From contig NZ_JAMXRZ010000045.1 in NCBI RefSeq assembly GCF_024124375.1, positions 1 to 32,220 on the forward strand: a stretch of DNA of 32,220 nucleotides, in the 5' to 3' direction. The stretch is from Klenkia sp. PcliD-1-E (lineage in GTDB: Bacteria; Actinomycetota; Actinomycetes; Mycobacteriales; Geodermatophilaceae). Positions 1 through 20,002 of this stretch are shown here, one piece after another. The translations under genes and the position numbers were made by a program. The notes under the pieces are model-generated. The model did not search any database. It worked only from the letters and a program-made list of their open reading frames with translations, and was not told the DNA's origin. Position 1 is the stretch's first letter. Each line of letters starts with the position of its first letter.

Positions 1-1189
1 GCCGGATCCCCGGGCCCAGCGTGCCGCCGTGCGCGGTCACCCACGCGCCGTGCGCCGCCCACGCCTGCGCACCCTGCGCGGCCCGGAACGCGGCGAACCA
101 CGCCTCGTGCTCGTCCCCGGCGGTGAGCCGCGTGGTGCGCACCGGCAGCCCGGACGCCGCGGCCACCGCCCGCACCAGGTCGGCCACCGCCGGGGCGGCC
201 AGCTCCAGCAGGTCCTCGGCCAGCAGCAGCTCGGTGACCGGTCGTGCCGCCGGCAGCAGGACCTGCGCGGTGCGGTGCAGCAGCCCGGCGTCGCGGGTCA
301 GCCAGCCCACGACGTCGAACCCGGGTGCCAGCGGTGCGACGCCCTCCAGCGGGAGCGCGCCGTGCGTGGGCCGCAGACCGTGCAGCCCGCACCACGACGC
401 CGGTACCCGGATCGACCCAGCGGTGTCGGTGCCCAGCCCCAGGTCGGCCTGGCCGCGGGCGACGGCGCTGGCCGGCCCGCTGGTCGAGCCGCCGACGACC
501 AGACCCGCGCCCCAGGGGTTGGCCGGGCTGCCGGTGTGCACGTTGGTGCCCGAGATGCTGTAGGCCAGCTCGTCGGTGGTGGCGATGCCCCGCACGTGCG
601 CGCCGGCCGCCAGCAGCGCGGCCAGCACCGGGGCGTGCGCGGGCTCGGTGCGGGCCGTCGCCAGCTTCACCGGGTTGCCCTGGCCCACCCGCTGACCGGC
701 CACCGCGACCAGGTCCTTGACCGCCACCGCGACGCCGTCCAGCGGGCCGCTGCCGGTGGGCGCGACCAGCGGGGAGCCGAGCACCCGCCAGGTCGCCGGG
801 TCGGTGACCGGTTCGAGCGGCTGCGGGCCGGCGCTGACGTGCGCGACCCGGACCTGCCAACCGGCCGGCCCGCGCTCCCACACCTGGGTCTGCAGCCCGC
901 GGGTGCCGTCGGGCCGCCGGGTCTCCGCGACCGCCGTCGCCAGGTCCGGGGTGTGCTCGACGACGTGCAGTGCGACGACGTCCCGGGCCGGTGCGCCCCC
1001 GCGGCCGCGGCGGTAGTCGCTGATCGCGGCGTGGGAGACCAGGACGCCGGCGGCGTCGGCCCGCAGGGTGTCCTCGCCGGGGGCGAACAGCGCGTCGAGC
1101 TCGGCCAGGTCGTCGGCGGCCAGGGCCGCCTCGTACCGGGCGACGGCGGCCCGGACCTCCTGCTCGACGCCCGCCCGGGTGCTGGTCAC
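1..1189 (-). CDS. AtzH-like domain fused to amidase-signature hydrolase (3' end off window)
   Basis: Amidase-signature hydrolase with an extra N-terminal domain; the C-terminus lies beyond the left edge. Residues about 1-125 look like the AtzH/HpxZ (DUF3225, SnoaL-fold) domain. From about residue 145 the amidase core begins, with a complete Ser-cisSer-Lys triad: K158 in VAVKDLV, S235 in GGSTSGPA and S259 in GTDTAGSIR. Stand-alone AtzH hydrolyses 1,3-dicarboxyurea next to the amidase AtzE in cyanuric acid catabolism, so the fusion suggests removal of ureido or biuret-like nitrogen at the end of a pathway. That role is inference. The GTG start overlaps the cupin stop by four bases (GTGA), so it is the last visible gene of the creatininase operon and probably translationally coupled. 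Confidence 0.85.
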   Translation of the reverse strand, partial: MTSTRAGVEQEVRAAVARYEAALAADDLAELDALFAPGEDTLRADAAGVLVSHAAISDYRRGRGGAPARDVVALHVVEHTPDLATAVAETRRPDGTRGLQTQVWERGPAGWQVRVAHVSAGPQPLEPVTDPATWRVLGSPLVAPTGSGPLDGVAVAVKDLVAVAGQRVGQGNPVKLATARTEPAHAPVLAALLAAGAHVRGIATTDELAYSISGTNVHTGSPANPWGAGLVVGGSTSGPASAVARGQADLGLGTDTAGSIRVPASWCGLHGLRPTHGALPLEGVAPLAPGFDVVGWLTRDAGLLHRTAQVLLPAARPVTELLLAEDLLELAAPAVADLVRAVAAASGLPVRTTRLTAGDEHEAWFAAFRAAQGAQAWAAHGAWVTAHGGTLGPGIR

Positions 1190-1623
1190 GCCGCGGTGAG
1201 AGCGGCGCCGAGCACGGCGGCGTCGTCGGCGTCCAGGAAGGCTTCCGGGCCGCTGCGGATCAGGTCGGCGAAGCCGCCGTCGTTCTCCATCACGGTGATC
1301 GTGTAGAGCCGCTCGGTGGCCGAGGTGTTGACGATGTGGTGCACCGACGTCGCCGGCAGCACGACGACGTCGCCCGGGCCGAGGTCGGCGACGTGCTGGT
1401 CGCTGTGCGCCCGGGCGGTGCCGCGCAGCACCACGAAGGTCTCGGTGGAGGCCTCGTGCGAGTTGTCCGGCTGCGCACCGCCGGGCTCCCAGATCTCCAG
1501 CACCACGGTGGTCGAGGACCCGTCGGCCGGGCCGGACAGCACGGCCAGCCGCACGGTGCGGTTCTCGCCGATGTAGTGCGGGGTGATGTCGGACAGCGAC
1601 TTCACGACGGGGGCGGTGGCCAT
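1186..1623 (-). CDS. Small single-domain cupin protein
   Basis: A 145-residue single cupin barrel. Cupin motif 1 is around residues 55-69 (SHEAS..ETFVVLRGTA) and motif 2 around 82-99 (LGPGDVVVLPATSVHHIVN). H56, E61 and H95/H96 are candidate metal ligands. The ATG has AGGAG about seven bases upstream, overlapping the TAG stop of the isochorismatase-like gene, so the two are tightly spaced. Its stop overlaps the start of the AtzH-amidase gene. Substrate cannot be read from sequence. Small cupins in catabolic operons can be isomerases, dioxygenases or ligand-binding proteins. Membership in the amidohydrolase operon is the only functional clue. Confidence 0.8.
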   Translation of the reverse strand: MATAPVVKSLSDITPHYIGENRTVRLAVLSGPADGSSTTVVLEIWEPGGAQPDNSHEASTETFVVLRGTARAHSDQHVADLGPGDVVVLPATSVHHIVNTSATERLYTITVMENDGGFADLIRSGPEAFLDADDAAVLGAALTAA

Positions 1624-1632
1624 GGGGTGCTC

Positions 1633-2373
1633 CTACGGTGCGAGGCCGGCGCGCAGGTCGGCCGAGGTGGTGGTGAACCCGAAGCACTGGCGCACGTTGT
1701 AGAGCGTGGCCTGGGTGCAGAAGTCCGGGGACGTGGTGCCGCACAGGTCCTCGACCAGGACGACGTCGTAGCCCAGGTTCGCCGCGTCGACGAGGGTGGC
1801 GTAGACGCACTGGTCGGTGTTGACCCCGGCGAACAGCAGGGTGTCCACCCGCAGGTTGCGCAGCACCGAGTCCAGTGGGGTGTCGGGGAACCCGCTCATC
1901 CGTTGCTTGGCGACGTGCAGGTCCTCGGGTTCGACGGTGAGCTCGTCGACCAGGCCGGCCGACCACGACCCCAGCTCCAGCACCCGCGAGCCGCCGGGCA
2001 GCGGGTCGCCGATGCCGGTGGAGGCGCCGTCGGGGTCGTAGACGTGCCGGACGCCCGGGGGCAGGTTGGCCCGGTCGGGCCGGTTGCCCCAGGTCACCCA
2101 GACGACGGGGACGCCGGCCGCGCGCAGCTCCGGCAGCACCGCGGCCAGGGCCCCGACCGGCGCCGCGGCTCCGGAGACGTCGACGCCGATGGAGGCCAGC
2201 CAGCCGTCGGGGTGGCAGAAGTCGTTCTGCAGGTCGACCGCGACCAGCGCGGTGCGGGCCAGGTCGAGGGTCAGCCGCTGGGGCAGCGCCGCGACCTCGA
2301 CCGGCCGGGGTTCCAGGCCGGGTCGGCGCAGGTCGACGTGCTCGCGCGACAGCGTCCAGGTGTTGCGGGTCAA
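1633..2373 (-). CDS. Isochorismatase-family cysteine amidohydrolase (biuret/ureidoacrylate hydrolase-like)
   Basis: A 246-residue cysteine hydrolase. The family triad is present: D47 (VAVDLQNDF), K156 (HVAKQRMSGF) and C189 (GVNTDQCVYATL). About 40 residues precede the core, and the stretch around GNRPDRANLPPGVRH resembles biuret hydrolase (BiuH), triuret hydrolase and RutB-type ureidoacrylate hydrolases, which split ureido amides. It could act on another carbamoyl amide. The start is taken as TTG at 2373, which overlaps the SDR stop in a TTGA arrangement matching the GTGA overlaps elsewhere. No ATG or GTG occurs in frame before the conserved core. It sits between the SDR and the cupin in one operon. 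Confidence 0.85.
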   Translation of the reverse strand: MTRNTWTLSREHVDLRRPGLEPRPVEVAALPQRLTLDLARTALVAVDLQNDFCHPDGWLASIGVDVSGAAAPVGALAAVLPELRAAGVPVVWVTWGNRPDRANLPPGVRHVYDPDGASTGIGDPLPGGSRVLELGSWSAGLVDELTVEPEDLHVAKQRMSGFPDTPLDSVLRNLRVDTLLFAGVNTDQCVYATLVDAANLGYDVVLVEDLCGTTSPDFCTQATLYNVRQCFGFTTTSADLRAGLAP

Positions 2374-3125
2374 TGCGTGACCATCCCGCCGGCGACGTTG
2401 AGCGCCTCGCCGGTCAGGTAGTCCGAGTCGCTGCTGGCCAGGAAGAGCGCGGCCCGGGCGACGTCCTCGGGCTGGCCGAGCCGGCCCAGCGGCGACTTCG
2501 CCGACCAGCAGGCGACGTCGGCGTCGGTGCGGGTGCCCGCGCCCATCTCGGTGAGCACGTACCCCGGGCACAGGCAGGTCGCGGTGATGCCCAGCGGGCC
2601 CAGCTCCTCCGCGGCGGCCCGGGTCAGCCCGATGACGGCCGCCTTGGACGCCGCGTAGTGCGCCTGGCCCGCGCCGCCGGCCTTGCCGCCCATCGAGGCG
2701 GTGTTGACCACCTTGCCCACGACGTCGCCCGGGAACGCCGGCGCGCGCTCGGCCACCATCGCGGTGACGGCGACCTGGGTGGTCACCAGCATCGCGCGGA
2801 CGTTGACCGCGAACACCTCGTCCCACTCGGCGGGCTCGATGTCCAGCAGCGGGGCGAAGCGCAGGATGCCGGCGTTGTTGACTAGCACGTCGACCCCGCC
2901 GAGCGCGTCGACCGCGGCCTGCGCGGCGGTGCGGGTGGCGGCGACGTCGGCCAGGTCGACCTCCACGGCGTGCCCGCCCACCTCGGCGGCGAGCTTCCCG
3001 GCCTCCTCGGCCAGCACGTCCAGGACCGCCACCTCGGCACCCTCCGCGGCGAAGGTGCGCACCATCGCGGCGCCGATGCCGCGCGCCCCACCGGTGACGA
3101 CGACGCGCTTGCCGGCGAGCCTCAC
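2370..3125 (-). CDS. SDR-family oxidoreductase
   Basis: A 251-residue classical short-chain dehydrogenase. It has the nucleotide-binding motif TGGARGIG (11-18), NNAG (83-86), catalytic S144 and YxxxK (Y157, K161). D36 at the end of the second strand favours NAD(H). Full length, with no extra domain. The GTG start overlaps the creatininase-like stop by four bases, and its own stop overlaps the start of the isochorismatase-like gene, so it is internal to a tightly coupled operon. It probably oxidises a carbinol or reduces a carbonyl intermediate in the same pathway; the substrate is unknown. Confidence 0.9.
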   Translation of the reverse strand: MRLAGKRVVVTGGARGIGAAMVRTFAAEGAEVAVLDVLAEEAGKLAAEVGGHAVEVDLADVAATRTAAQAAVDALGGVDVLVNNAGILRFAPLLDIEPAEWDEVFAVNVRAMLVTTQVAVTAMVAERAPAFPGDVVGKVVNTASMGGKAGGAGQAHYAASKAAVIGLTRAAAEELGPLGITATCLCPGYVLTEMGAGTRTDADVACWSAKSPLGRLGQPEDVARAALFLASSDSDYLTGEALNVAGGMVTH

Positions 3126-3901: not shown

Positions 3902-3921
3902 GGTCCCGGACGCTAGGACCG
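3901..3921 (-). promoter_or_regulatory. Candidate leaderless promoter with overlapping inverted repeat
   Basis: On the minus strand TAGCGT (3915-3910) ends eight bases before the GTG of the creatininase-like gene, as in leaderless actinobacterial promoters. The hexamer lies between perfect 6-bp inverted arms, CGGTCC (3901-3906) and GGACCG (3916-3921), so a bound repressor would cover the -10 box. Assignment is by pattern only. Confidence 0.4.
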
Positions 3922-3995
3922 CGTCGTTGCGGCGCGGTGACGGTCGCGTTCCAGCCGACACCTGCCCGGAACACACAGCTGCCAGGGTCGGTCCC

Positions 3996-5279
3996 GTGAT
4001 GGACGTGACCGGAGCCGTGGCCGTGCTGGGGTCGACCTCCCGGGAGGTCTCGTGCGGCGACGACGGGCGCGTCGCCGGGTTCGCCGCGGCCGGCGGCGAG
4101 GTGCTGGACGCCACCGGCTGCGTGGTGACGCCGGGGCTGGTGAACGCCCACCACCACCTGCTGCAGACCGCCTTCCGCACGCTGCCGGGCACCCGCGGTG
4201 TCCCGATGGCGCAGTGGCTGCCGACCATGGCCGCGGCCTACGGGGCGGTCGGCGTCGACCCCGAGCTGGCGCACGCCGCGGCGTCCGCGGGTCTGGCCGA
4301 GGCGTTGCTGTGCGGGGTGACCACGGTCGCCGACCACCACCTGACCTGGCCCCCCACCGACCTGGACGTCGGCATCGCCCACGGCGTGGCCGCTGCGGCC
4401 ACCCAGCTCGGCGCCCGGCTGGTCTTCGTCCGCGGCTCGGCCCGCGACGACCCGGGCACCGCGGCCGCCTCCGCCGACGCCATCGCGGGCGCGCTGGTAC
4501 CCCACGGCGGCGTGACCTCGGACGGCATGCTGCAGGTGGCCGTGGGCCCGGCCGGGGTGCACAGCGACGGCCCGGACACCTTCCGGTTGATGGCCGAGGT
4601 GGCTGCCGCCCGCGGTCTGCGCCGCCGGACCCAGGCCAACGAGCAGGTCGACGTCGACGTCGCGGCCGCCCGGTACGGACGCCGTCCCCTGGAGCTGCTC
4701 GACGACTGGGGCTGGCTGGCCCCCGACGTCACGCTGGCCCACCTGTGCGGGGTCACCGACGCGGAGGTCGCGCGGTTGGCCGCGGCCGGGGTGAGCGCGA
4801 CGCACGCGCCGGGCTGCGACCTGCCGATGGGGTGGGGCATCGCGCCGGTGGCTGCGCTGGCCGACGCCGGGGTGCCGGTGGGCCTGGGCACCAGCGGCGG
4901 TGGGTCCAACGACGCCGGGCACCTGCTGGCCGACGCCCGGCTGGCGATGCAGGTGGCGCCGCTGGTCGGCCGGGCCCTGTCCGCGGAGGAGCTGCTGGGG
5001 TTCGCCACCCGCGGGTCGGCCGACGGGCTGGGCCGGCCCGACCTGGGCCGGCTGGAGGTCGGTGCGCGGGCCGACCTGGTCTGCTGGGACGTCACCGGGG
5101 TCGCCGACGTCGGGGTGGCCGACCCGGTCGCGGGGCTGCTCTGGGCCTCCCCCGGGCGGCGTCCCAAGCACGTGGTGGTCGGTGGCCGGGTCGTCGTGCG
5201 CGACGGCCGCCTGGTCACCCGCGACGAGACCGACGTGGCCGACGACCTGCGCCACCTGCTCGGCGCCCGCCGCCGATGA
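3996..5279 (+). CDS. Amidohydrolase-superfamily protein, 8-oxoguanine deaminase-like, with altered metal site
   Basis: About 426 residues, divergent from the creatininase operon. The fold is clear: PGLVNAHHHLLQTAFR carries the HxH pair (numbering from the ATG at 3999, H51/H53), LAHLC carries H248, and GCDLPMGWGIAPVAAL matches the 8-oxoguanine deaminase/triazine hydrolase group. Two ligands normally invariant there are changed. The strand-5 motif HTHLAE reads RTQANE, giving Q212 for His. The strand-8 motif GVDGSASND reads GTSGGGSND, giving S299 for Asp. Ordinary zinc-hydrolase chemistry is therefore doubtful; a changed reaction, metal-free activity or a decayed function are all possible. GTG at 3996 follows CAGGGT by seven bases; ATG at 3999 is the alternative start. 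Confidence 0.85.
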   Translation: MMDVTGAVAVLGSTSREVSCGDDGRVAGFAAAGGEVLDATGCVVTPGLVNAHHHLLQTAFRTLPGTRGVPMAQWLPTMAAAYGAVGVDPELAHAAASAGLAEALLCGVTTVADHHLTWPPTDLDVGIAHGVAAAATQLGARLVFVRGSARDDPGTAAASADAIAGALVPHGGVTSDGMLQVAVGPAGVHSDGPDTFRLMAEVAAARGLRRRTQANEQVDVDVAAARYGRRPLELLDDWGWLAPDVTLAHLCGVTDAEVARLAAAGVSATHAPGCDLPMGWGIAPVAALADAGVPVGLGTSGGGSNDAGHLLADARLAMQVAPLVGRALSAEELLGFATRGSADGLGRPDLGRLEVGARADLVCWDVTGVADVGVADPVAGLLWASPGRRPKHVVVGGRVVVRDGRLVTRDETDVADDLRHLLGARRR

Positions 5280-5291
5280 CCGGGCCGGCAG

Positions 5292-6275
5292 TCAGCCGAC
5301 GGGCTCGGCGTAGCTGTTGACCAGCACGTACTCCTTCATGAACTGCTCCTGCCAGTCGTAGGCGGTGATCGGCAGGTAGCGGGGGCCCTCCGCGCCGATC
5401 ATCGTCTCCACGGGGGCGACGACCTGGTCGATGTTGGGCAGGAAGAACATCGCGATCGACTGCCTCTCCGCGGTCGGGTCCGGGCCGGCGACCACCCGGT
5501 GCACGGTGGCCGGGAAGCGGCCGTTGGTCCACCGCGACATCAGGTGCCCGATGTTGATCACGAAGGCGTCCTCCCGCAGCGGCACGGTGACCCACCCGCC
5601 AGCGGCGTCGCGCACCTGCAGGCCCTCGTAGCTGCCGCGCTGGTGCAGCACGGTCAGCCCGCCGGAGTCGGCGTGCGGGTTGAGCACCACCTCCTCGACG
5701 TAGTCGTCGTCCACCGGCTGCGGCGGGTACAGGTTGACGCTGAACAGCGTGACGTCCTTGCTGAACGGCTCGGCGAAGAAGTCCCGCGGCAGGCCCATGG
5801 CCAGGGCGAACAGCCCCATCAGGGTGCGGGCGAGCGATCTCGTCGCCGCGTCGTAGGCCTTCCACGTCGTGCGGAAGCCGGGCAGCTGCTCAGGCCACAC
5901 GTTGGGCACGAAGTAGTCGGGGTGCCCGCCCACCGCGTCGTCGGCCTCGGCGGCGGCGAGGTCGTCGTAGGTCAGGAACTGCAGCGCCCGGTTGAGCACG
6001 CGGCCGCGCTCGTCGATCTCCTCGAACAGCCCGCGCGAGCTCGCCCGCGGCCGGACCAGCGCCCGCCGCTCCGCCTCGGGCATCGTCGCGATCTGGTCCA
6101 TAGCGGCGTAGGCGGCATCGAGGACCGCGGGGTCGACCCGGTGGCCGGTCACCTGCAGGAAGCCGACCTCGGTGAGGGCGTGCCGGAGCTGCGCGACGCA
6201 GCCGGCCAAGGCCGCGGGGTCGTCCCCGAAGGCCGGGGACACGTCGACGACGGGGATGCTGGGGATGCTGGACAC
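5292..6275 (-). CDS. Isopenicillin N synthase-like Fe(II)/2-oxoglutarate oxygenase
   Basis: A 327-residue non-heme iron oxygenase of the IPNS/2OG-FeII family. The facial triad is H201 and D203 (NPHADSGGLTVL) and H259 (ATVHRV). R271-x-S273 (RQSIAMFF) is the usual 2-oxoglutarate-binding pair. The DIOX_N-type region covers residues 8-120. The GTG start is preceded by GAGGAAGG nine bases upstream. It ends only 12 bases from the convergent amidohydrolase-like gene, with no obvious hairpin between them. In this setting hydroxylation or oxidative N- or O-dealkylation of the pathway substrate is plausible but not shown by sequence. Confidence 0.9.
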   Translation of the reverse strand: MSSIPSIPVVDVSPAFGDDPAALAGCVAQLRHALTEVGFLQVTGHRVDPAVLDAAYAAMDQIATMPEAERRALVRPRASSRGLFEEIDERGRVLNRALQFLTYDDLAAAEADDAVGGHPDYFVPNVWPEQLPGFRTTWKAYDAATRSLARTLMGLFALAMGLPRDFFAEPFSKDVTLFSVNLYPPQPVDDDYVEEVVLNPHADSGGLTVLHQRGSYEGLQVRDAAGGWVTVPLREDAFVINIGHLMSRWTNGRFPATVHRVVAGPDPTAERQSIAMFFLPNIDQVVAPVETMIGAEGPRYLPITAYDWQEQFMKEYVLVNSYAEPVG

Positions 6276-8393: not shown

Positions 8394-9476
8394 ATGACCG
8401 CCCTGCAGGAGCCCCGCACCACCCGCCATGCCGGACCCGAGACCCTGGTCCTGTCCGAGCACCCCGTCTTCCGCCGGTTCTGGTACGCCGTGTGCGCGGT
8501 GGACGACGTCCGCACCGACGTCGAGCCCGGTCGGCGCGGCGCCGCCCCGCTGCACCGGAAGGTGCTGGGCACCGACCTGGTCCTCTGGCGGCCCGATCCG
8601 TCCGGCCCGGTCAGCGTCGCGCACGACCGCTGCGCGCACCGCGACGCGCCGCTGTCGATGGGCTGGGTCGCCGACTGCCACCTGGTCTGCCCCTACCACG
8701 GGTGGGAGTGGGACGCCGACGGCCTGACCCAGCGCATCCCGCAGTTCCCCGACTCCCCGCACCCCACGAAGTCAGGGTTGACGATGGTGCGCAGCCAGGA
8801 GCGCTACGGCCTGGTCTGGGTGTGCCTGGCCACCGACGCCGAGGGCGGGCCGGTCGCCGACGTGCCCGCGGTCGAGGAGTGGGACGACCCGGCCTGGCGG
8901 CAGGTCCCCGAGGGCTCGTGGGACTTCGACTGCACCGCCATGCACCTGGTCGAGAACAACATCGACCCCGGCCACGTCGCCTTCGTGCACATGAACAGCT
9001 TCGGCAACCCCGACAACCCCGAGCTCACCGACCAGAACGTGCAGCGCACGCCCTACGGGCTGATCACCTGGACCGACGTCCCGGTCGAGGGCCGGCCCGG
9101 TGAGGACGGCGCGACGGTGCGGCACACCTGGAGCCAGGTGCACCTGCCCTTCTTCATGCACCTGCTCATCCGCTACCCCGACGGCCTGGGCCACGTGATG
9201 CTCAAGGCCATCACGCCGGTCGACGACACCCACTGCACCATCCACCAGGTCGTGCTGCGCACCGACACCGAGGCCGACCGCCCCGCCGCCGACATCCGCG
9301 CCTTCGACCACCAGGTGGAGCTGGAGGACAAGGCCCTGCTGGACCGGCTGCCCGACGAGTTCCCGCTCGCCCAGCACCTCAACGCGCACGCCAAGGCCGA
9401 CAAGAACAGCCTGCTGCTGCGCCGCCTGTACACCGAGCTGGTCACCGGCCAGTGGACCCCCGGAGGACCCGCGTGA
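8394..9476 (+). CDS. Rieske non-heme iron oxygenase, oxygenase subunit (phthalate dioxygenase-like)
   Basis: A 360-residue aromatic-ring-hydroxylating or demethylating oxygenase. The Rieske [2Fe-2S] ligands are C80, H82, C99 and H102 in a CxH-x16-CxxH pattern. The mononuclear iron site is ENNIDPGHVAFVH (D191, H194, H199), with an acidic ligand probably near the LPDEFPL segment. The monocomponent type fits the phthalate-dioxygenase/O- and N-demethylase group (vanillate demethylase-like). It needs a reductase, and the flavoprotein at 19000-19953 is the obvious partner. The ATG is preceded by GGGAA. The stop overlaps the next amidohydrolase start by four bases (GTGA). Confidence 0.93.
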   Translation: MTALQEPRTTRHAGPETLVLSEHPVFRRFWYAVCAVDDVRTDVEPGRRGAAPLHRKVLGTDLVLWRPDPSGPVSVAHDRCAHRDAPLSMGWVADCHLVCPYHGWEWDADGLTQRIPQFPDSPHPTKSGLTMVRSQERYGLVWVCLATDAEGGPVADVPAVEEWDDPAWRQVPEGSWDFDCTAMHLVENNIDPGHVAFVHMNSFGNPDNPELTDQNVQRTPYGLITWTDVPVEGRPGEDGATVRHTWSQVHLPFFMHLLIRYPDGLGHVMLKAITPVDDTHCTIHQVVLRTDTEADRPAADIRAFDHQVELEDKALLDRLPDEFPLAQHLNAHAKADKNSLLLRRLYTELVTGQWTPGGPA

Positions 9477-10837
9477 CCACCAAGCTGCTCGTGCACGGCG
9501 CCACCCTGCTCACCGTCGACCCGCAGCGGCCCGACCCGTTCACCGGCTGGTTCGCCGTCGGCGACGACGGCCGGATCACCGCCGTCGAGGCAGGCGACCC
9601 CACCCCGGAGCAGCGGGCGGGCGCGGTGCAGACGCTGGACGCCACCGGCACGATCGTCGGGCCCGGCTTCGTCAGCGCGCACAGCCACCTGTTCACCTCC
9701 GGCAGCCGTGGCCTGGGCATGGACGAGACGCTGTACGGCTGGATCGAGGCCATGCTCCGCTACGTCATGCCGGCCACGCCCGAGGACATGTACTGGTGCA
9801 CCCGGCACGGCGCGCAGGACTTCCTGCGCAACGGCATCACCACCGCCTACGACTTCACCGACGGCGGCCTGCAGTTCGACAAGACCGTCGCCAGCTTCGG
9901 GGACCGGGTGCCGCCCGTCGAGCGCCAGGACGCCCAGCTGCGGGCCAAGACCGACGCCGGGCTGCGCAGCCTGCACTCGGTGATGCTCGCCCAGGGCGAC
10001 GTCCCCCGGGCCGACGCGCTGGCCCACGTCGAGGACACGGTGAAGGCCGCGGCCGATGCCGACCCGTCGCTGCTGCTGGGCGTGGCGATCAGCGGGGCGG
10101 TCCAGTGGGCCCCGACGCCGGACACCGCGGCGCTGGAGACCGAGGTGATGCGCCGGTACGGGCTGGTCAACCAGGCCCACTTCCTGGAGACCGCCGAGAT
10201 GCTGGAGCTGCAGCGGTCGAAGTTCGCCTGGTACGTCGACGCCGGCGCGCTGTCGCCGGAGCTGGTGTTCGGGCACTTCATCCAGACGACGCCCGAGATC
10301 ATCGCCACCGCCGCGGCGGCCGGGTGCGCGATGAGCTGGCAGCCGATGAGCAACGGCCGGCTGGCCAGCGGGGTGGCGTCGATCCCGGAGATGCGCGCCG
10401 CCGGCATGCGGGTCGGGATGGGCCTGGACGACCAGTCCTGCACCGACGTCGCCGACCCGTGGAACAACATGCGCACCGGCATCGCGCTGCTGCGCGCGCA
10501 GTACAAGGACCCGATGGCCGCCCCCGTCGGCGACGTGCTGATGATGCACACCCGCGGCGGCGCCGAGGCCCTGGGCGTCGACGACCGGGTGGGCTCGCTG
10601 CGGGTCGGCCGGTACGCGGACTTCTGCGTGGTCGACCCCCGCCGTCCCGACACCGGACCGGTGTGGGACGCCGTCGGCACCTACGTGCTGGCCTGCTCGC
10701 TGCGCAACCTGCGGTCGGTGTGGGTCGGCGGGGAGGCCGTCGCGCACGGCGCGGACCTGGTCGACCCGCAGGCCGGCGAGGTGGAGTCGCAGGTGCACGA
10801 GCGGCTGGCCCGGATCGCCGCGGACCTGGGCGGGTGA
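9473..10837 (+). CDS. ATZ/TRZ-type amidohydrolase (deaminase or N-heterocycle hydrolase)
   Basis: A 454-residue amidohydrolase-superfamily enzyme with an intact metal site: H70 and H72 (SAHSHLF), H236 (VNQAHFLET), H268 (LVFGHFIQ) and D319 (GMGLDDQS). The family removes amino, chloro or alkylamino groups from triazines, purines, pterins or pyrimidines, or opens rings, so it is a candidate deaminase or ring hydrolase acting after Rieske oxidation. It contrasts with the 3996-5279 paralogue, which has lost two ligands. Both ends overlap neighbours by four bases, placing it firmly in one translationally coupled operon with the Rieske and acetamidase-like genes. Confidence 0.9.
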   Translation: MTTKLLVHGATLLTVDPQRPDPFTGWFAVGDDGRITAVEAGDPTPEQRAGAVQTLDATGTIVGPGFVSAHSHLFTSGSRGLGMDETLYGWIEAMLRYVMPATPEDMYWCTRHGAQDFLRNGITTAYDFTDGGLQFDKTVASFGDRVPPVERQDAQLRAKTDAGLRSLHSVMLAQGDVPRADALAHVEDTVKAAADADPSLLLGVAISGAVQWAPTPDTAALETEVMRRYGLVNQAHFLETAEMLELQRSKFAWYVDAGALSPELVFGHFIQTTPEIIATAAAAGCAMSWQPMSNGRLASGVASIPEMRAAGMRVGMGLDDQSCTDVADPWNNMRTGIALLRAQYKDPMAAPVGDVLMMHTRGGAEALGVDDRVGSLRVGRYADFCVVDPRRPDTGPVWDAVGTYVLACSLRNLRSVWVGGEAVAHGADLVDPQAGEVESQVHERLARIAADLGG

Positions 10838-11913
10838 GGGTCCTCCAGCCCGGGGAGGGGCCGGTCGCCGGCGACGTGCACCTGCCGGCGTCGCCGGAGC
10901 ACGTGCTGTGGGGCCGGCTGCCGTGCGCGGCCGACGAGCCGGTGCTGGAGGTGCAGCCGGGCACCGCGGTCACGTTCGACACGATCAGCCACGAGGGCAT
11001 CCTGGAGGACCAGGGCCGCGACCCGGCGGCGTTCTTCGGCGCCCACGGGGTGACCGAGGTGCTCGCCGACGCCGTCGCGCTGGCCGCCAGCGACCACCCG
11101 CACCGCTTCGGCGTCGACGGCCCGCACGTGGTCAGCCGTCCGGTGGCCGTCGCCGGCGCGCAGGTCGGCGACCTGCTGGCCATGACGCTGCTGGACGCGA
11201 CGCCGCGGGTGCCCTACGGGGTCATATCCAACCGGCACGGCAAGGGCGTGCTGGTCGGCGAGCACCCGCTCGGGGGCGCGCCGGTGTTCAGCGCGTTCGC
11301 CACGGTCAGCGAGGACGGCGCCCACGGCCTGCTGCCGCTCACCCCGGGTGCCGAGCCGACGGTGGCCTTCCCGCTGCGGCCCTTCCTCGGCGTCATGGGG
11401 GTGGCGGTGGCCGGCCCTGAGCGGCCGCACTCGGTGCCGCCGGGCCCGCACGGCGGCAACGTCGACATCGCCCTGCTCACGGCGGGATCCACGCTGTACC
11501 TGCCGGTGCAGGCCGACGGTGGGCTCGCCTACGTCGGCGACCCGCACGTCGCGCAGGGGGACGGCGAGGTGTCGCTGACCGCCATGGAGGCCAGCCTGCG
11601 GGCCACGGTGCGGCTGGACGTCGTCGCGCGGGAGGACGCGGTGGCCCGGTTCGGCAAGCTGGCCGGGCCGCTGGTGGAGACGACGGAGTTCCTGGTGCCC
11701 ACCGGCATGGACCCCGACCTCGACCTGGCCGTGGCCGACTGCGTGCGGGCGGCGATCGCGCTGCTGCAGGCCCGGTTCGGGATGGACCGGTCGCTGGCCT
11801 ACGCCTACCTGTCGGCGGCCACCGACTTCCGGATCAGCCAGGTCGTGGACGTGGTCAAGGGCGTCCACGCCACGATCAGGAAGTCGGACTTCACCAGCCG
11901 GGCGGGCGCCTGA
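10834..11913 (+). CDS. Acetamidase/formamidase family protein
   Basis: A 359-residue FmdA/AmdA-family amidohydrolase. Typical segments are the early TFDTISHEGI region, the GVISNRHGKGVL region, and PGPHGGNVDIALLTAGSTLYLPV in the second half, followed by the family's C-terminal AYAYLSAATDFRISQVVD-like helix. The family hydrolyses formamide, acetamide and short-chain amides to ammonia and acid. Here it could release ammonia from a small amide left by ring cleavage. The GTG start overlaps the preceding stop (GTGA). The last 23 bases overlap, tail to tail, the 3' end of the convergent amidase gene, so no separate terminator fits. Confidence 0.92.
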   Translation: MRVLQPGEGPVAGDVHLPASPEHVLWGRLPCAADEPVLEVQPGTAVTFDTISHEGILEDQGRDPAAFFGAHGVTEVLADAVALAASDHPHRFGVDGPHVVSRPVAVAGAQVGDLLAMTLLDATPRVPYGVISNRHGKGVLVGEHPLGGAPVFSAFATVSEDGAHGLLPLTPGAEPTVAFPLRPFLGVMGVAVAGPERPHSVPPGPHGGNVDIALLTAGSTLYLPVQADGGLAYVGDPHVAQGDGEVSLTAMEASLRATVRLDVVAREDAVARFGKLAGPLVETTEFLVPTGMDPDLDLAVADCVRAAIALLQARFGMDRSLAYAYLSAATDFRISQVVDVVKGVHATIRKSDFTSRAGA

Positions 11914-13303
11914 ACCTGACCAGCCCGGCCTGCTCGGCCAGGCAGGCCACGGCCAGCGGGGTGCGGTCCTCCAGGTAGGGGCCCAGCAGCTGGGCACCGA
12001 CAGGCAGGCCGCTGACCGCACCGGGCCCCAGCGGGACGACGGTGGCCGGGAGCCGGCCCAGGCTGGACAGCCGCGCCCAGTCGCAGACCGAGTCGATCGG
12101 CACCTCGCGGCCTGCGACCTCCACGGTCTCCGGGGCGGTCATCGCGGCCGTGTAGGTGGTGGCCACCCGCGAGACCGCCGGGCACAGGACGACGTCGACG
12201 CCGGCGAACACCTCCGCCCAGCGGGCGGTGGCCGCCCGCTGGGCCTCCAGGTCGTGCAGCGCCGCCCACACCGACTGGTGGTAGCGGTCGTCGGCGTCGG
12301 CGAGGTCCTCGGCGGTGAAGCCGTGCACGATCTCCGCCGACTGCAGCCGCAGGTACAGCGCCAGGTCCGCGCTCCCGCCCACGGGAGGGTGCGCGAGCTC
12401 GGCGACGTGGGCGCCCTCCCCGGCCAGCGCGTCGGCGAAGCCGCGGATCGCCGTCGCCACCTCGGGGTCGACCGGGGCGGCCGGGTCGTCGAGCCACACC
12501 CCGACCCGCAGGCCCGCGAGCGAGGCCACCCGGGCCGGGGGCAGCCGCAGCTGCCAGCCCACCGACTCCAGGCCCTCGGCGCCGACGAGCACCTCGGTGA
12601 ACGCGGCGGTGTCGGCGGCGGAGCGGGCGAACGGGCCGATCGAGCTGACCATCGGCTCCAGCAGGCCGCCGTCCGGCCAGGGCATGTTCCCCAGCTTGGA
12701 CACCGCGCCGTTGCTGGGCCGATGGCCGAACAACCCGCACCACGCCGCCGGGACGCGCAGCGACCCGGCCAGGTCGCTGCCCAGGTCGGCGACACCCAGG
12801 CCGGCCGCGACGGCGGCCGACGACCCACCGCTGGACCCGCCGCTGGAGCGGGTGGGGTCCCACGGGTTGGTCGTGGCACCGAAGAGGGCGTTCTCGCTGT
12901 GCATGCTGGCCAGCCACACCGGCACGTTGGTCTTGCCCAGGACCACGCACCCGGCCTCCCGCAGCCGCCGGACGGCGGGGGCGTCGACGGTGGCCAGCCG
13001 GCGGTCGTCCGGGCGGCCGTGCGAGCTGGGCAGGCCGGCCGCGTCGACGGAGTCCTTCACGGTGATCGGCAGCCCCGCCAGCGGCCCCAGTGGCCGGCCG
13101 GCGACGCGGTCGGCGTCCAGCGCGCGGGCCGCGGCGACCGCGCCCTCGGCGTCCACGGCGACGAGGGCGTTCAGCGCCGCCCCCGGGCCGGCGATCCGGT
13201 CCAGGTGCGCGCGGGTGAGCTCCTCGGCGGACACCTCGCCGGCCGCCAGGGCGGCCAGCATGGTGGTGCCGTCGACGAGGGTGTCCAGCGCCGTCGAGGT
13301 CAC
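11891..13303 (-). CDS. Amidase-signature family amidase
   Basis: A 470-residue amidase with the complete Ser-cisSer-Lys triad: K83 (ITVKDSVD), S157 (GGSSGGSSAAVAAG) and S181 (SDLAGSLRVPA). It has standard single-domain length and, unlike the amidase at the left edge, no AtzH extension. The substrate is not predictable. The GTG start overlaps the TGA of the truncated flavin-monooxygenase remnant by four bases, so its translation probably depends on that short frame. The tail overlaps the convergent acetamidase-like gene. Confidence 0.92.
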   Translation of the reverse strand: MTSTALDTLVDGTTMLAALAAGEVSAEELTRAHLDRIAGPGAALNALVAVDAEGAVAAARALDADRVAGRPLGPLAGLPITVKDSVDAAGLPSSHGRPDDRRLATVDAPAVRRLREAGCVVLGKTNVPVWLASMHSENALFGATTNPWDPTRSSGGSSGGSSAAVAAGLGVADLGSDLAGSLRVPAAWCGLFGHRPSNGAVSKLGNMPWPDGGLLEPMVSSIGPFARSAADTAAFTEVLVGAEGLESVGWQLRLPPARVASLAGLRVGVWLDDPAAPVDPEVATAIRGFADALAGEGAHVAELAHPPVGGSADLALYLRLQSAEIVHGFTAEDLADADDRYHQSVWAALHDLEAQRAATARWAEVFAGVDVVLCPAVSRVATTYTAAMTAPETVEVAGREVPIDSVCDWARLSSLGRLPATVVPLGPGAVSGLPVGAQLLGPYLEDRTPLAVACLAEQAGLVRFRRPPGW

Positions 13304-13545
13304 GCCGGGCCCGTCATGGCCACACCCTGGTTGCCGACGACCTCGTAGCCCTCGTGCTGGAAGTGGTGCTCGGTCCACCACATCGTGTCGTAGCCCAGCC
13401 GGTCACCGACCTCGGCGAGCGCGACGAGGTCCTCGTACGCCGCGGCGACGTCCGCCCGCCCGTAGCGCCGCTCGGTGGCCGGCGGACCGTCGAGGCCGGC
13501 GTCGGGCATCGCGACCGCGCCGAGCAGGTTGGTGTCGATCCGCAT
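13300..13545 (-). pseudogene. Truncated luciferase-like (LLM) flavin monooxygenase, N-terminal remnant
   Basis: An 81-residue frame starting MRIDTNLLGA and containing the LLM-family segment LGYDTMWWTEHHF with the following EGYEVVGNQG. Family members are about 330-400 residues, so only the first quarter is present; after about residue 77 the frame ends with four residues and a TGA. That TGA overlaps the amidase start in a GTGA arrangement, so the remnant may survive as a coupling leader. An internal deletion that kept the original stop would explain the geometry. The ATG follows CACGAT by six bases. A functional mini-protein is possible but unlikely. Confidence 0.7.
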
Positions 13546-14946: not shown

Positions 14947-15861
14947 TCAGCGGTCGCGGGACTGGTCGTACCAGCTGCCGACGACGAGCTTGGACAGCCA
15001 GCCGAAGAGGAAGAACACCGCGAAGCCGAGCGCGGCGGTGACCACGATCGTGAAGAACAGCGGGGCGCCCTGCAGGCGGGAGCTGAAGTTCGACAGCAGG
15101 ATGCCCAGCCCCGGTTCGCCCTGCTTGAAGAACAGGTCGCCGACGATCGCGCCGACCACGGACAGGCCGGCGGAGATGCGGAACCCGGCGAAGATGGCCG
15201 GCAGCGCCGCGGGCAGCTGCAGCTTGACCAGCCGGGTGAACCGACCGGCCTTGTGCAGGGTGAACAGCTCGTGGTGCCCGCGGTCCACCGACTGGATGCC
15301 GAACAGCGTGTTCGACACGATGGGGAACAGCGCGATCATCACGCAGACGATGACCCGGGACGGGAAGCCGAAGCCGAACCAGAACCCGATCAGCGGGACC
15401 AGGGCCAGGATCGGGATGCACTGCAGCGCGACGGCGTAGGGGTACAGCGAGCTCTCGACCGCCTTGCTCTGGCTCATCGCGATCGCCCACAGCATGCCGA
15501 TCACGATCGCGATCGCCAGGCCGGTGAACGTGACCACGATCGAGCGGCCCAGCGCCGGCCACACCTTCTCGGTGATGGTCGGGTCCAGCAGCGCATCGGT
15601 GATGAGGGTGTGCGGAGCCGGCATGAGGAAGCGCCGGCCGGGGTCCAGCACCAGGTAGGTGATGGCGTACCAGACCCCGATGAGGGCGGCGAACACCACG
15701 ACCGGCAGGGCCAGGTTCATCGCCTTCTTCCCGCGGCGGCGCCGGACGGCGCGCGGGGGTGCCGCGCTGTCGGCGACCGCCTCGGCGGTGGGGCTCTCGA
15801 GGGTGGTGGTCACGGCGGTCTCCTCGGAGGGGCTGGTCTGGCCGGGCAGGGTGGCGGTCAC
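14947..15861 (-). CDS. ABC transporter permease, NitT/TauT (SsuC) family
   Basis: A 304-residue BPD-type inner-membrane permease. A long polar N-terminus of about 50 residues ends in a basic RRRRGKK cluster, followed by about six hydrophobic helices starting with LALPVVVFAALIGVWYAI. The cytoplasmic EAA-like loop lies around HELFTLHKAGRFTRLVKLQLPAALP. The start is taken as GTG at 15861, overlapping the ATPase stop by four bases. Together with the ATPase and lipoprotein it forms a complete importer of the nitrate/sulfonate/N-heterocycle group. Confidence 0.92.
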   Translation of the reverse strand: MTATLPGQTSPSEETAVTTTLESPTAEAVADSAAPPRAVRRRRGKKAMNLALPVVVFAALIGVWYAITYLVLDPGRRFLMPAPHTLITDALLDPTITEKVWPALGRSIVVTFTGLAIAIVIGMLWAIAMSQSKAVESSLYPYAVALQCIPILALVPLIGFWFGFGFPSRVIVCVMIALFPIVSNTLFGIQSVDRGHHELFTLHKAGRFTRLVKLQLPAALPAIFAGFRISAGLSVVGAIVGDLFFKQGEPGLGILLSNFSSRLQGAPLFFTIVVTAALGFAVFFLFGWLSKLVVGSWYDQSRDR

Positions 15862-16631: not shown

Positions 16632-16669
16632 GGTCACCTCCGGTGCGTCTGCGGGGGTCCGGCCCGGGT

Positions 16670-16681
16670 GGGACCGGTCCC
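16670..16681. promoter_or_regulatory. 12-bp perfect palindrome upstream of the ABC operon
   Basis: GGGACCGGTCCC is a perfect dyad about 40 bases before the ATPase start. It is a candidate operator for the transporter operon. GC-rich palindromes arise by chance at this composition, so support is weak. Confidence 0.3.
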
Positions 16682-16707
16682 GTCGCCCGGCGGCTCACCG
16701 GGCGACG
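16681..16707 (-). terminator. Hairpin between deaminase-like and transporter genes
   Basis: CGTCGCCCGG (16681-16690) pairs perfectly with CCGGGCGACG (16698-16707) around a 7-base loop. It lies about 66 bases past the stop of the cytosine-deaminase-like gene and before the ATPase gene. It could end the upstream transcript or attenuate read-through. No T-tract follows. Confidence 0.4.
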
Positions 16708-16772
16708 CAGTCACGATGGGCGCGGACTGTTTCGCCTGCGTGTGCCATCGGTGAACGCAGCCGACCGGTTCA

Positions 16773-18008: not shown

Positions 18009-19003
18009 GACAGTTCTCTCCCGATCTCCGCCAAAGCCGCGGCGGTGGAGGGTTCGGTGCCGGGTGCGGCCACCCCGGACAGGTCGACCCCGCGCACCCC
18101 GGGGACGGCGAGGTAGGCCTGCGCCAGCGCGACGGCCGCGGCGATCCCGGCCCGGCGGGGGTCGCGGGCGGACTCGATGCCGGCCAGGTAGCCCCCGGGC
18201 AGCCGCAGACCGGTGAACCGGCGCAGCTGCGCGACCGAGCCAGGGTCGGTGGCCACCGCGACGCAGGCGACGAACGGCACGTCGGCCCCGGCGTCGGTGG
18301 CCGCGGCGACGAAGTCGGCCAGCTCGGCCGGGCCGCCGGCGTGGTCGACGAAGCAGACCTCGGCGCCGGCCCGCACCTTCTCCACCAGCCGGTGCGGGCG
18401 CCGGTCGGCGGGCGGGCCGTGCGGGGTCTCCCCCACCGAGACCAGCAGCCCGGCGGCGCGGGCGCCGGCGGCCAGCTGCGTGGAGTCCAGGTCGAACACC
18501 GGCTGGGCGTCGGGCCGGTCCCCCGTGGCGGTGTGGTCGCCGGTGACGCAGTGCACGGCGCCCACACCGAGGTCGGCCAGCGCGGCCAGCTCGCCCTCCA
18601 GCGCGACGCGGTTGCGGTCCCGGCAGTTCAGCCCCTGCCAGACCGGGACGCCGCGGGCCTGCACCAGCGCGGCGCGGTAGGCCGGCGGGAACTGCACCCG
18701 GGCAGCGGCGTGGTCGCCGAGCAGGACGGCGTCCACCCGGCCGGCGACGAGGTCGGCGCAGCGCTCGAGCGACCCGCGGGACAGCGCGACGGCCGGCAGG
18801 TCGGCCACCACCACCGGCCGCTGCCGCATGAGCGCGAGCAGCCGGGGCTCGCCCCCGGCGCGGGTCACCGGCTCGCCCGGCCAGCGCACGGTGGGCAGGG
18901 GCAGGAAGGCACACGGGTCGGGGGCGACCTCGCAGCTGCCGTCCTCGGCGACCCCGCCGCACGGCCCGTAGGTCATCGCCTTGGGGCAGGCGGGTGCGCT
19001 CAC
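18005..19003 (-). CDS. Methylenetetrahydrofolate reductase-like protein with N-terminal MTHFR_C/MetV-type Cys motif
   Basis: 332 residues in two parts. Residues 6-31 hold a four-Cys segment (C6, C15, C24, C31; CPKAMTYGPCGG then CEV) typical of the MTHFR_C/MetV zinc-type domain of acetogens and some actinobacteria. The rest is a MetF-like TIM barrel, with NCRDRNRVALEGEL (126-139), the CVTGDH loop (152-157) and FDLDSTQL (170-177). Where MetF has its catalytic Glu in an AELTPP-like motif, this protein seems to read VADLPA (D68). It probably handles a folate C1 unit, for example methyl or methylene carbon released from the substrate. Both ends overlap neighbours by four bases. True MTHFR activity is uncertain. 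Confidence 0.8.
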   Translation of the reverse strand: MSAPACPKAMTYGPCGGVAEDGSCEVAPDPCAFLPLPTVRWPGEPVTRAGGEPRLLALMRQRPVVVADLPAVALSRGSLERCADLVAGRVDAVLLGDHAAARVQFPPAYRAALVQARGVPVWQGLNCRDRNRVALEGELAALADLGVGAVHCVTGDHTATGDRPDAQPVFDLDSTQLAAGARAAGLLVSVGETPHGPPADRRPHRLVEKVRAGAEVCFVDHAGGPAELADFVAAATDAGADVPFVACVAVATDPGSVAQLRRFTGLRLPGGYLAGIESARDPRRAGIAAAVALAQAYLAVPGVRGVDLSGVAAPGTEPSTAAALAEIGRELS

Positions 19004-19953
19004 AGGTCGAGCACGAGGCGTGGGCCGGCGGCACGGGAGACGCAGACCATCATCACGGTGCCGTCGGCCTGCTCCCCGGGGCTGAGCACGGAGTCCCGGT
19101 GCTCCACCTCGCCCTCCAGGACGGGGGTCTCGCAGGTGCCGCAGGTGCCCACCCGGCACGAGCTCAGCACGTCCACCCCGGCCCCGGCGACGGCGGCCAG
19201 CACCGACTGGCCGGGCTCGACGACGACGGTGCCGCCGGTGAGCGCCAGCTCGACCTCGAACGGGTCCGGCCAGACCGGGGCGCCGAACTCCTTGGCCTCG
19301 AACCGCTCCACGTGCAGCGTGCCCGCCCAGCCCTCGGCGGCGGACTCCAGGGCGTCGAGCAGCTTCGCCGGGCCGCAGGCGAAGACCGCGGTGTCGGCGT
19401 CGACGTCGAGCGCGGCGACGTCGAGCCGGTCGCCCTCGTCGCCGACGTGCAGCCGCACCCGCCCGGGGTGGGCGGCCAGCAGCTCCGCGGCGAAGGCCAT
19501 CCGGGCCCGGGAGCGCCCGGCGTACTCCAGCGTCCAGTCCGCGCCGGCCGCGTCCGCAGCGGCGAGCATCGCGCGCAGCGGCGTGATGCCGATGCCGCCG
19601 GCGACGAAGAGGTAGCGGGTGCCCGGGGTGACCTCGAACGGGAAGTGGTTGCGCGGCCCGCGCACCCGCAGCCGCTGGCCGACCTCGACGTCGTCGTGCA
19701 GCGCCCGGGAGCCCCCGCCGTCGGCCTCGCGCAGCACCGCGACCCGCCAGGTGGCGCGGTCGGCGACGTCCCCGCACAGCGAGTACTGCCGCTCCAGCCC
19801 GGGCCGCACCACCAGGTCCAGGTGCGATCCGGGCGTCCAGGCGGGCAGGTCGCGGCCGTTGTGCGACACCAGGTCCAGGGCCAGCACGCCGTCGGCGAGC
19901 GGCGTGCGGCCGGCGACCACGAGGTCGCGTTCGACGTCGGAGAAGAAGCTCAC
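19000..19953 (-). CDS. Phthalate dioxygenase reductase-type ferredoxin-flavin oxidoreductase
   Basis: About 317 residues in the PDR/VanB order. First comes a flavin domain with RQYSLCGD, then an NAD domain with FVAGGIGITPLRAM and FACGPAKLLDAL. A C-terminal plant-type [2Fe-2S] domain follows, with SCRVGTCGTC and a distal Cys in MMVCVSRA. It passes electrons from NAD(P)H to a Rieske oxygenase; the only oxygenase visible is at 8394-9476, in the opposite operon. GTG at 19953 is preceded by AGGA with seven bases spacing and is preferred; GTG at 19968 adds five residues. It is first in the leftward trio and its stop overlaps the MetF-like start. Confidence 0.92.
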   Translation of the reverse strand: MSFFSDVERDLVVAGRTPLADGVLALDLVSHNGRDLPAWTPGSHLDLVVRPGLERQYSLCGDVADRATWRVAVLREADGGGSRALHDDVEVGQRLRVRGPRNHFPFEVTPGTRYLFVAGGIGITPLRAMLAAADAAGADWTLEYAGRSRARMAFAAELLAAHPGRVRLHVGDEGDRLDVAALDVDADTAVFACGPAKLLDALESAAEGWAGTLHVERFEAKEFGAPVWPDPFEVELALTGGTVVVEPGQSVLAAVAGAGVDVLSSCRVGTCGTCETPVLEGEVEHRDSVLSPGEQADGTVMMVCVSRAAGPRLVLDL

Positions 19954-20002
19954 CGGCCGATCCTGCACACCCGCACCGCCCCGGGTGCAGATGACGCAGA
20001 AG

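What the first reader, a model, noticed from the sequence alone, without database searches (positions are those of the whole stretch)
1..19968. Large uncharacterised N-heterocycle degradation island
About 20 kb carries two amidase-signature enzymes (one fused to AtzH), an isochorismatase-type amidohydrolase, a creatininase-family enzyme, an acetamidase/formamidase, three amidohydrolase-superfamily proteins, a Rieske oxygenase with reductase, a 2OG-type oxygenase, two other flavoenzyme or SDR oxidoreductases, a MetF-like protein and a NitT/TauT importer. The domains are seen directly. That they form one pathway is inferred from operon overlaps and shared theme. I recognise no known cluster (purine, Rut pyrimidine, hydantoin, atrazine, caffeine) with this set. 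The AtzH- and BiuH-like parts point to a ureido or biuret-type terminal intermediate.
Basis: partly seen in the sequence, partly recalled or inferred. Interest (0 to 1): 0.78.

Follow-up and report, generated by a model that had tools for sequence, protein, structure and literature searches.

The report
Conserved pterin-type heterocycle degradation gene island
A 22-kb block of genes in a soil-type actinobacterium looks like one uptake-and-breakdown pathway for a ring-shaped nitrogen compound, possibly a folate or pterin fragment, and its core recurs as a linked set in many other actinobacteria.

Summary
The island is one linked unit, syntenic in other Klenkia genomes. Of 64 untruncated loci chosen by their TrzN-like amidohydrolase (g6), 47 also hold the cytosine-deaminase-like amidohydrolase, the three ABC importer genes, the FAD oxidase and the creatininase, over 25 genus labels. 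In an unselected phylum sample, all 9 other genomes with the creatininase (E<=1e-50) carry the deaminase on the same contig within 6 kb.

The FAD oxidase g20 is nearest to PDB 6v42, a "flavin oxygenase ... involved in folate catabolism". A 66% relative of 6v42 in Rhizobium sits in an operon with matching partners plus a Mo-hydroxylase. The binding protein folds most like formylaminopyrimidine/thiamin-binding proteins. I infer a modular folate/pterin-type catabolic pathway, confidence 0.5; the substrate is unproven.

Extra amide-hydrolase and oxygenase genes are largely Klenkia additions, though several recur beside the core elsewhere. g6 has two TrzN metal-site residues replaced in 79 of 79 sequences.

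The parts
2..1189 (-). g1 AtzH-like + amidase-signature fusion, cut by contig end
   Evidence: Pfam PF11533 78 bits, PF01425 147 bits; 519 aa in G001, best NCBIfam PRK08310 amidase 341 of 391
1186..1623 (-). g2 cupin
   Evidence: Cupin_2 47 bits
1633..2373 (-). g3 isochorismatase-type hydrolase (RutB/BiuH-like, below both cut-offs)
   Evidence: PF00857 134 bits; RutB 130/378, BiuH 116/370
2370..3125 (-). g4 SDR; at 23 of 80 g6 loci
   Evidence: PF13561 189 bits
3122..3901 (-). g5 creatininase family, core
   Evidence: PF02633 223 bits
3996..5279 (+). g6 TrzN-related amidohydrolase with two replaced metal-site residues, core
5292..6275 (-). g7 2OG-Fe(II) oxygenase
   Evidence: PF03171 74 bits
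6748..8307 (+). g8 FAD oxidoreductase (CrtO/amine-oxidase-like)
   Evidence: 46-52% relatives in 6 of 8 g5/g17 loci of another class
8394..9476 (+). g9 Rieske oxygenase (VanA_C type)
   Evidence: PF00355 66 bits, PF19112 56 bits
9473..10837 (+). g10 COG0402-type amidohydrolase; at 16 of 80 g6 loci
10834..11913 (+). g11 acetamidase/formamidase family
   Evidence: PF03069 108 bits
11891..13303 (-). g12 amidase (urethanase UMG-SP-like)
   Evidence: PF01425 279 bits; 9sk0 209 bits
13300..13545 (-). g13 luciferase-like monooxygenase remnant: in-frame loss of 309 codons
13649..14824 (-). g14 substrate-binding protein, core
   Evidence: no Pfam or NCBIfam; AlphaFold model pLDDT 91.3, top fold 3ix1
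14947..15861 (-). g15 ABC permease, core
   Evidence: PF00528 90 bits
15858..16631 (-). g16 ABC ATPase, core
   Evidence: PF00005 92 bits
16773..18008 (-). g17 cytosine-deaminase-like amidohydrolase, core
   Evidence: PF07969 70 bits; 1k6w 134 bits
18005..19003 (-). g18 MTHFR-like protein with N-terminal Cys motif; GTG start overlaps the stop of g19
   Evidence: PF02219 29 bits; profile finds MTHFRs first in the PDB, best E 1.3e-10; start and Cys motif
19000..19953 (-). g19 FAD/2Fe-2S reductase, core
   Evidence: Fer2 46 bits; 63 of 80 g6 loci
   Evidence: PF01243 49 bits, PF10590 38 bits; 35 of 80 g6 loci

Best explanation
The island is a modular import-and-mineralisation pathway for a folate/pterin-type compound (a 2-amino-4-oxo-pyrimidine ring fused to pyrazine, free or as part of a folate). 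Shown: gene content, conserved linkage of the core, and fold/sequence relations. Inferred steps: (1) g14-16 import the compound; (2) where present, the MTHFR-like g18 removes or rearranges the one-carbon group of a reduced folate; (3) g17, perhaps with g10 and g6, deaminates the ring at C2 to a lumazine-type compound; (4) the ring is hydroxylated, by an adjacent Mo-hydroxylase in part of the Microbacteriaceae and in Rhizobium, and perhaps by g7, g8 or g9 in Klenkia; (5) the flavoenzyme g20, with g21 and g19 as redox partners, oxygenates and opens the ring; (6) the creatininase-type g5 hydrolyses a cyclic amide or formamide; (7) g1, g3, g11 and g12 release ammonia from the amide, ureido and formamide fragments. 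That the core genes form one pathway is about 0.9 likely; that the substrate is folate/pterin-type is about 0.5.
For: Synteny in other Klenkia genomes. Core recurrence: of 64 untruncated g6-bearing loci g17 is in 59, g16 59, g15 58, g14 57, g5 52, g20 49, and these six together in 47, over 25 genus labels. Unselected sample: of 395 other phylum genomes 9 have g5 at E<=1e-50 and all 9 have g17 (E<=1.4e-76) on the same contig within 6 kb. g20: top PDB relative by sequence (149 bits against at most 41 for the rest) and by fold (E 1.7e-33, TM 0.85/0.82, against 2.1e-25 for the next entry) is 6v42, titled 'flavin oxygenase with cofactor bound involved in folate catabolism'. The part of 6v42 printed is 66% identical to a Rhizobium brockwellii protein whose neighbours are creatininase, SBP/ATPase/permease, cytosine deaminase, NAD(P)H oxidoreductase, RidA, XdhC and a Mo-hydroxylase; g5, g14-g17 and g20 match that stretch at 24-45% identity and three other proteobacterial plasmid loci at 22-60%. 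g14 folds most like formylaminopyrimidine- and thiamin-binding proteins and Thi5. g18 matches MTHFRs. XdhC or Mo-hydroxylase genes lie near 38 of 80 g6 loci.
Against: g20 is only about 29% identical to 6v42, and 6v42's function rests on a PDB title: no paper was found. No orthology of g17 to the cloned pterin deaminases could be tested; the amidohydrolase of the related Comamonadaceae operon does not begin like the cloned Variovorax gene. No carboxypeptidase G or p-aminobenzoate gene was recognised in the window. The SBP fold matches are moderate (TM 0.59 on the query side), the best are pyrimidine/thiamin binders and TauA follows at rank 4; no pterin binder is among the 50 shown. g6, g18, g19 and g21 have no match in the Rhizobium stretches. 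In another class the g5/g17 pair occurs without a g20 match at E<=1e-50. Five Curtobacterium loci and G372 carry uricase, so the neighbourhood may be about purines. The own genome has no close Mo-hydroxylase: best 38% to that of G372. g18 is at only 9 of 80 g6 loci.
Confidence: 0.5

Rival explanations
1. Purine-type pathway: the core degrades an unusual or alkylated purine (for example a methylated guanine or an N6-substituted adenine/cytokinin) to a product that enters xanthine dehydrogenase and uricase.
For: XdhC/Mo-hydroxylase near 38 of 80 g6 loci; uricase near 5 and in G372, with racemase and purine-type permease; g6 is closest to the TrzN/8-oxoguanine deaminase group; Rieske and MTHFR-like genes would fit demethylation; maize cytokinin oxidase is among the fold matches of g20 (rank 38).
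Against: Uricase was found only at Curtobacterium loci among the 80; g20 is much closer to 6v42 than to cytokinin oxidase; no uricase or allantoin-pathway domain was reported for the window genes scanned.
Confidence: 0.22
2. Pyrimidine or thiamin-fragment pathway: the imported ligand is a monocyclic aminopyrimidine (thiamin pyrimidine or similar), deaminated by g17 and opened by g20/g5.
For: g14 top folds are formylaminopyrimidine- and thiamin-binding proteins and Thi5; g17 is closest to cytosine deaminase; g3 is RutB-like.
Against: TM only 0.59 on the query side; Mo-hydroxylase neighbours and the folate title of 6v42 point to a bicyclic ring; no thiaminase domain was reported for the window genes scanned.
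Confidence: 0.15
3. Xenobiotic s-triazine-like pathway assembled from TrzN-, AtzB/C-, AtzE/H- and BiuH-like parts.
For: g6 is 36% identical to TrzN of pTC1; AtzC (N-isopropylammelide hydrolase) among g17 hits; AtzH/E-like g1 and BiuH-like g3.
Against: The core is conserved as a set over 25 genus labels, which suits a natural substrate; the triazine-family scores lie below cut-off; no cyanuric acid hydrolase domain was reported; a metal ligand of TrzN (role recalled) is replaced in g6.
Confidence: 0.04
4. Two or more unrelated catabolic modules that happen to adjoin in Klenkia: the conserved core, plus an amide/ureido module (g1-g3, g11, g12) and an oxygenase module (g7-g9).
For: g7, g9 and g12 passed the thresholds only at Klenkia loci among the 80; g1 and g11 also at one Curtobacterium, g3 at one Agreia.
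Against: g8 and g13 relatives lie in g5/g17 loci of another class (6 and 4 of 8); g1+g11 and g2+g3 recur beside the core in other genera; neighbouring genes such as g4-g5 and g9-g10-g11 overlap.
Confidence: 0.2

Closest known systems
Rhizobium operon holding 6v42-like FAD oxygenases (R. brockwellii CC275e L131; R. etli CIAT 652 pC L128)
   Same: creatininase, cytosine-deaminase-like hydrolase, NitT-type ABC importer and FAD oxygenase; L131 also has XdhC and a Mo-hydroxylase, as near 38 of 80 actinobacterial g6 loci
   Different: no match to g6, g18, g19 or g21; LysR regulators, a RidA-type gene, an NAD(P)H oxidoreductase and (L128) urea amidolyase instead; identities to the window core 24-45%
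PDB 6v42/6v43 flavin oxygenase (folate catabolism by its title)
   Same: fold and sequence family; clearly the best match of g20
   Different: about 29% identity; its reaction is not known to me from any paper (one search found none)
Variovorax sp. F1 carboxypeptidase G + pterin deaminase route (PMC9513972; parts 1 and 2 of 5 read)
   Same: folate degradation that includes ring deamination by an enzyme grouped with cyclic-amidine hydrolases
   Different: two separately identified enzymes giving deaminopteroic acid; no importer, oxygenase or creatininase described in the parts read
TrzN triazine hydrolase (pTC1)
   Same: 36% identity to g6 over 422 aligned positions
   Different: H238 and T325 of TrzN are Q213 and S300 in g6
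Rut pyrimidine pathway
   Same: RutB-like hydrolase, a luciferase-like gene and a flavin enzyme
   Different: RutB model far below cut-off; the luciferase-like gene is a remnant here

Membership tests
6v42-type (folate-catabolism) flavin oxygenase | nearest solved relative by sequence and by fold | tested here: met
   g20: 149 bits; Foldseek E 1.7e-33, TM 0.85/0.82
6v42-type (folate-catabolism) flavin oxygenase | gene neighbourhood with creatininase, cytosine deaminase and NitT importer, as around the 66% relative of 6v42 | tested here: met
6v42-type (folate-catabolism) flavin oxygenase | oxygenation of a folate-derived substrate | not testable with these tools
   needs enzymology
pterin deaminase (Arad3529, Variovorax PDA) | metal-binding residues of cytosine-deaminase-type hydrolases | tested here: met
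   H56, H58, H208, H240, D307 invariant in 17 of 17 g17 sequences aligned (the window's and 16 chosen of 67 near-full-length ones); their roles are recalled
pterin deaminase (Arad3529, Variovorax PDA) | orthology to a characterised pterin deaminase | not tested
TrzN / 8-oxoguanine deaminase | curated score | tested here: not met
   g6 264.8 of 532 bits for PRK08203
TrzN / 8-oxoguanine deaminase | metal-site residues H238 and T325 (TrzN numbering; roles recalled) | tested here: not met
   Q and S in 79 of 79 sequences
Methylenetetrahydrofolate reductase | Pfam MTHFR gathering score (24 bits) | tested here: met
   g18 29 bits, weak; profile finds MTHFRs first in the PDB, E 1.3e-10
Methylenetetrahydrofolate reductase | reduction of methylene-THF | not testable with these tools
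   needs enzymology
Creatininase (creatinine amidohydrolase) | curated equivalog score | tested here: not met
   g5 101 of 235; MftE 128 of 172; Pfam family met, 223 bits
Rut pyrimidine pathway | RutB equivalog score | tested here: not met
   g3 130 of 378
Biuret/s-triazine (BiuH, AtzE) | equivalog or subfamily scores | tested here: not met
   BiuH 116 of 370 for g3; AtzE models 131 of 461 and 128 of 426 for the cut g1, 127 and 128 for its full-length relative in G001
Oxalurate catabolism (HpxZ) | equivalog score | tested here: not met
   g1 73 of 135; full-length relative 75

The most novel reading that the evidence does not exclude
A complete pathway in soil- and plant-associated actinobacteria that imports natural reduced folates or pterins, strips the one-carbon unit with an MTHFR-like enzyme working in catabolism, and mineralises the pteridine ring through a flavin oxygenase, a creatininase-type ring opener and a TrzN-related hydrolase with a rebuilt metal site. 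It could supply genes for classical pteridine-breakdown activities that, as far as I recall, have none assigned.
Probability: 0.27. Interest if true: 0.78.

Novelty: new variant of a known kind. Interest (0 to 1): 0.6.

Why it matters
The environmental fate of folate and pterins is poorly known; a 2022 paper says the mechanisms are not fully understood (PMC9513972). A conserved gene set with candidate importer, deaminase, oxygenase and ring-opener makes the question directly testable. It also gives a natural relative of the herbicide-degrading enzyme TrzN and a non-canonical MTHFR-like family in a catabolic setting.

Tried and rejected
Cytokinin degradation by g20: rejected as the first choice, because plant cytokinin oxidase is far down the fold list (rank 38) and FAD_binding_4 is the only Pfam domain reported for g20. 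s-Triazine pathway: see rivals. Rut pathway: RutB score far below cut-off and the luciferase-like gene is a remnant. Creatinine degradation: creatininase equivalog not met and no hydantoinase domain reported for the window genes scanned.

Literature: nine searches of the open library gave one paper that bears directly on bacterial folate/pterin breakdown, PMC9513972 (parts 1 and 2 of 5 read, plus a term search). PMC13259868 was only searched for four terms. All other papers were seen as search listings. Statements that no paper on 6v42 or on such an operon was found rest on these searches of openly licensed papers alone.

Linking g17 to the cloned Variovorax pterin deaminase failed: its sequence is not held, and the Comamonadaceae operon protein starts differently from the paper's primer as I translate it. 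The RidA-type gene near both is therefore weak evidence.

NCBIfam was run on 20 of the 32 gene models and Pfam on 30.

Calls that failed and were put right: file name, redone; strand, redone; report format. The finer structure comparison library was not available.
Full report
What is there. The 32,220-base window is the whole of contig C202 of a 4.51-Mb draft genome. Same-genus genomes G001 and G007 hold contigs with the same lengths as Klenkia brasiliensis and Klenkia terrae records, so the host is taken to be a Klenkia (Geodermatophilaceae; family recalled). A home-made gene finder trained on the window gave 32 models.

One unit, not a chance gathering. A close g18 match (81% identity or more) is present in 7 of 8 other same-genus genomes examined; G003 has no match at E<=0.001. 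Gene order is kept across g1-g21 in G001, with the same order in the fetched parts of G002, G004, G006 and G007; g7 and g13 were not found in G004 and G006. Within the flanks held (up to 10 kb), counts of 80 loci are: g17 70, g16 69, g15 68, g14 67, a HTH-cupin regulator 64, g19 63, g5 59, g20 57, XdhC 37, g21 35, Mo-hydroxylase 24, g4 23, g10 16, MobA-like 15, g18 9, uricase 5 (identity thresholds set per gene in that script). The HTH-cupin, XdhC, Mo-hydroxylase, MobA and uricase references come from G372. Of the 64 loci at least 21 kb long, 47 have g17, g16, g15, g14, g20 and g5 together, over 25 genus labels; 2 (a Rhodococcus and a Microbacteriaceae MAG) have none of g14-g17.

That scan was selected on g6, so I also used an even sample of 396 genomes of the phylum, own genome included. 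g6 (E<=1e-80) and g20 (E<=1e-50) are found only in the own genome and G372. The creatininase g5 (E<=1e-50) is in 9 others, and all 9 also have g17 (E<=1.4e-76) on the same contig within 6 kb. Ten further genomes have weaker g17 matches (E 8e-56 to 1e-50) without g5 at that cut-off. Eight of the nine are outside the own class; their loci carry g14-like genes (7 of 8), g8-like genes (6 of 8, 46-52%), g13-like luciferase-type genes (4 of 8, 44-46%) and Mo-hydroxylase-like genes (3 of 8, 30-35%). So parts that look like Klenkia additions among the 80 loci have links to the same core elsewhere. Likewise g1 and g11 recur beside the core at one Curtobacterium locus, g2 and g3 at one Agreia locus, and g10 at 16 of 80 loci. 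g7, g9 and g12 passed the thresholds only at Klenkia loci.

What it acts on. The flavoenzyme g20 has one outstanding relative among solved structures: 6v42/6v43, 149 bits against 41 or less for the others. The AlphaFold model (pLDDT 92.5) finds the same entry first (E 1.7e-33, TM 0.85/0.82, 29% identity), titled 'Crystal structure of the flavin oxygenase with cofactor bound involved in folate catabolism'. The stretch of 6v42 printed is 66% identical to a Rhizobium brockwellii protein. That gene lies in a run XdhC, PaoC, xanthine-dehydrogenase subunit M, PaoA, creatininase, LysR, SBP, ATPase, permease, cytosine deaminase, FAD oxidase, NAD(P)H oxidoreductase, RidA, much like the actinobacterial core where it has Mo-hydroxylase neighbours. 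Window g5, g14, g15, g16, g17 and g20 match this stretch at 37, 24, 32, 45, 32 and 31% identity; g6, g18, g19 and g21 do not match it. The same six match loci of Rhizobium etli pC, Nitratireductor OM-1 and a Comamonadaceae plasmid at 22-60%. The binding protein g14, with no Pfam family, folds most like formylaminopyrimidine-binding 3ix1, thiamin-bound 4nmy and Thi5 (TM 0.59 on the query side, 0.75 on the target side for the first), with TauA at rank 4. g18 is MTHFR-like: 29 bits in Pfam, and its profile finds MTHFRs first in the PDB. These lines together favour a folate/pterin-type substrate. None proves it: the 6v42 function is a title without a paper that I could find, g17 could not be compared with the two cloned pterin deaminases, and the core also adjoins uricase in five Curtobacterium loci and G372.

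Active sites. g17 keeps the residues expected for a cytosine-deaminase-type metal site in the 17 sequences aligned (roles recalled). g6 is 36% identical to TrzN of pTC1; TrzN H238 and T325 correspond to Q213 and S300 in 79 of 79 sequences, while H52, H54, E216 and H249 are kept in all 79. Either g6 binds its metal in a new way or it has lost it; its conservation argues for function.

Mechanism. Import (g14-16), deamination (g17, perhaps g10 and g6), hydroxylation (Mo-hydroxylase elsewhere; in Klenkia perhaps g7, g8 or g9, since the best match in the own genome to the G372 Mo-hydroxylase is only 38%), flavin-dependent oxygenation (g20 with g19/g21), hydrolytic opening (g5) and release of ammonia from fragments (g1, g3, g11, g12). 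Every step after gene identity is inference. Rivals are a purine-type substrate, a monocyclic pyrimidine/thiamin fragment, a triazine-type xenobiotic, and several modules side by side.

Verdict. Its claim of no known relative is too strong, because the core resembles the operon around 6v42-like enzymes. As a substrate assignment, folate/pterin is the best current guess at about one in two.

Noticed in passing
window 13300-13545: The luciferase-like monooxygenase gene is an 81-aa remnant with an in-frame loss of 309 codons relative to its 390-aa relative in G001; a real deletion or an assembly collapse. No relative was found in the islands of G004 and G006.
   Followed up: partly
window 3996-5279: TrzN-related amidohydrolase with Q and S in place of two TrzN metal-site residues, invariant in 79 of 79 sequences.
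   Followed up: partly
L037:3571-7044: A paralogue of the MTHFR-like gene (51% identity) is followed by a methyltransferase and a circularly permuted ATP-grasp gene, a different setting for this family.
   Followed up: no
L021:14217-18808: In G001 (taken as Klenkia brasiliensis) about 5.5 kb lies between the g21 and g22 orthologues, with a DUF7507/DUF7927 repeat protein and two CNNM-type genes, absent from this window.
   Followed up: no
plasmid collection, matches: Relatives of the FAD oxidase and of the deaminase occur on Klebsiella (4 records) and Pantoea (5 records) plasmids, so the operon type may travel on plasmids; their neighbourhoods were not read.
   Followed up: no
own genome contigs C211, C236, C215, C227, C111, C197: Six contigs hold xanthine-dehydrogenase-type Mo-hydroxylase matches, none close to the one beside the core in G372 (best 38%).
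   Followed up: no
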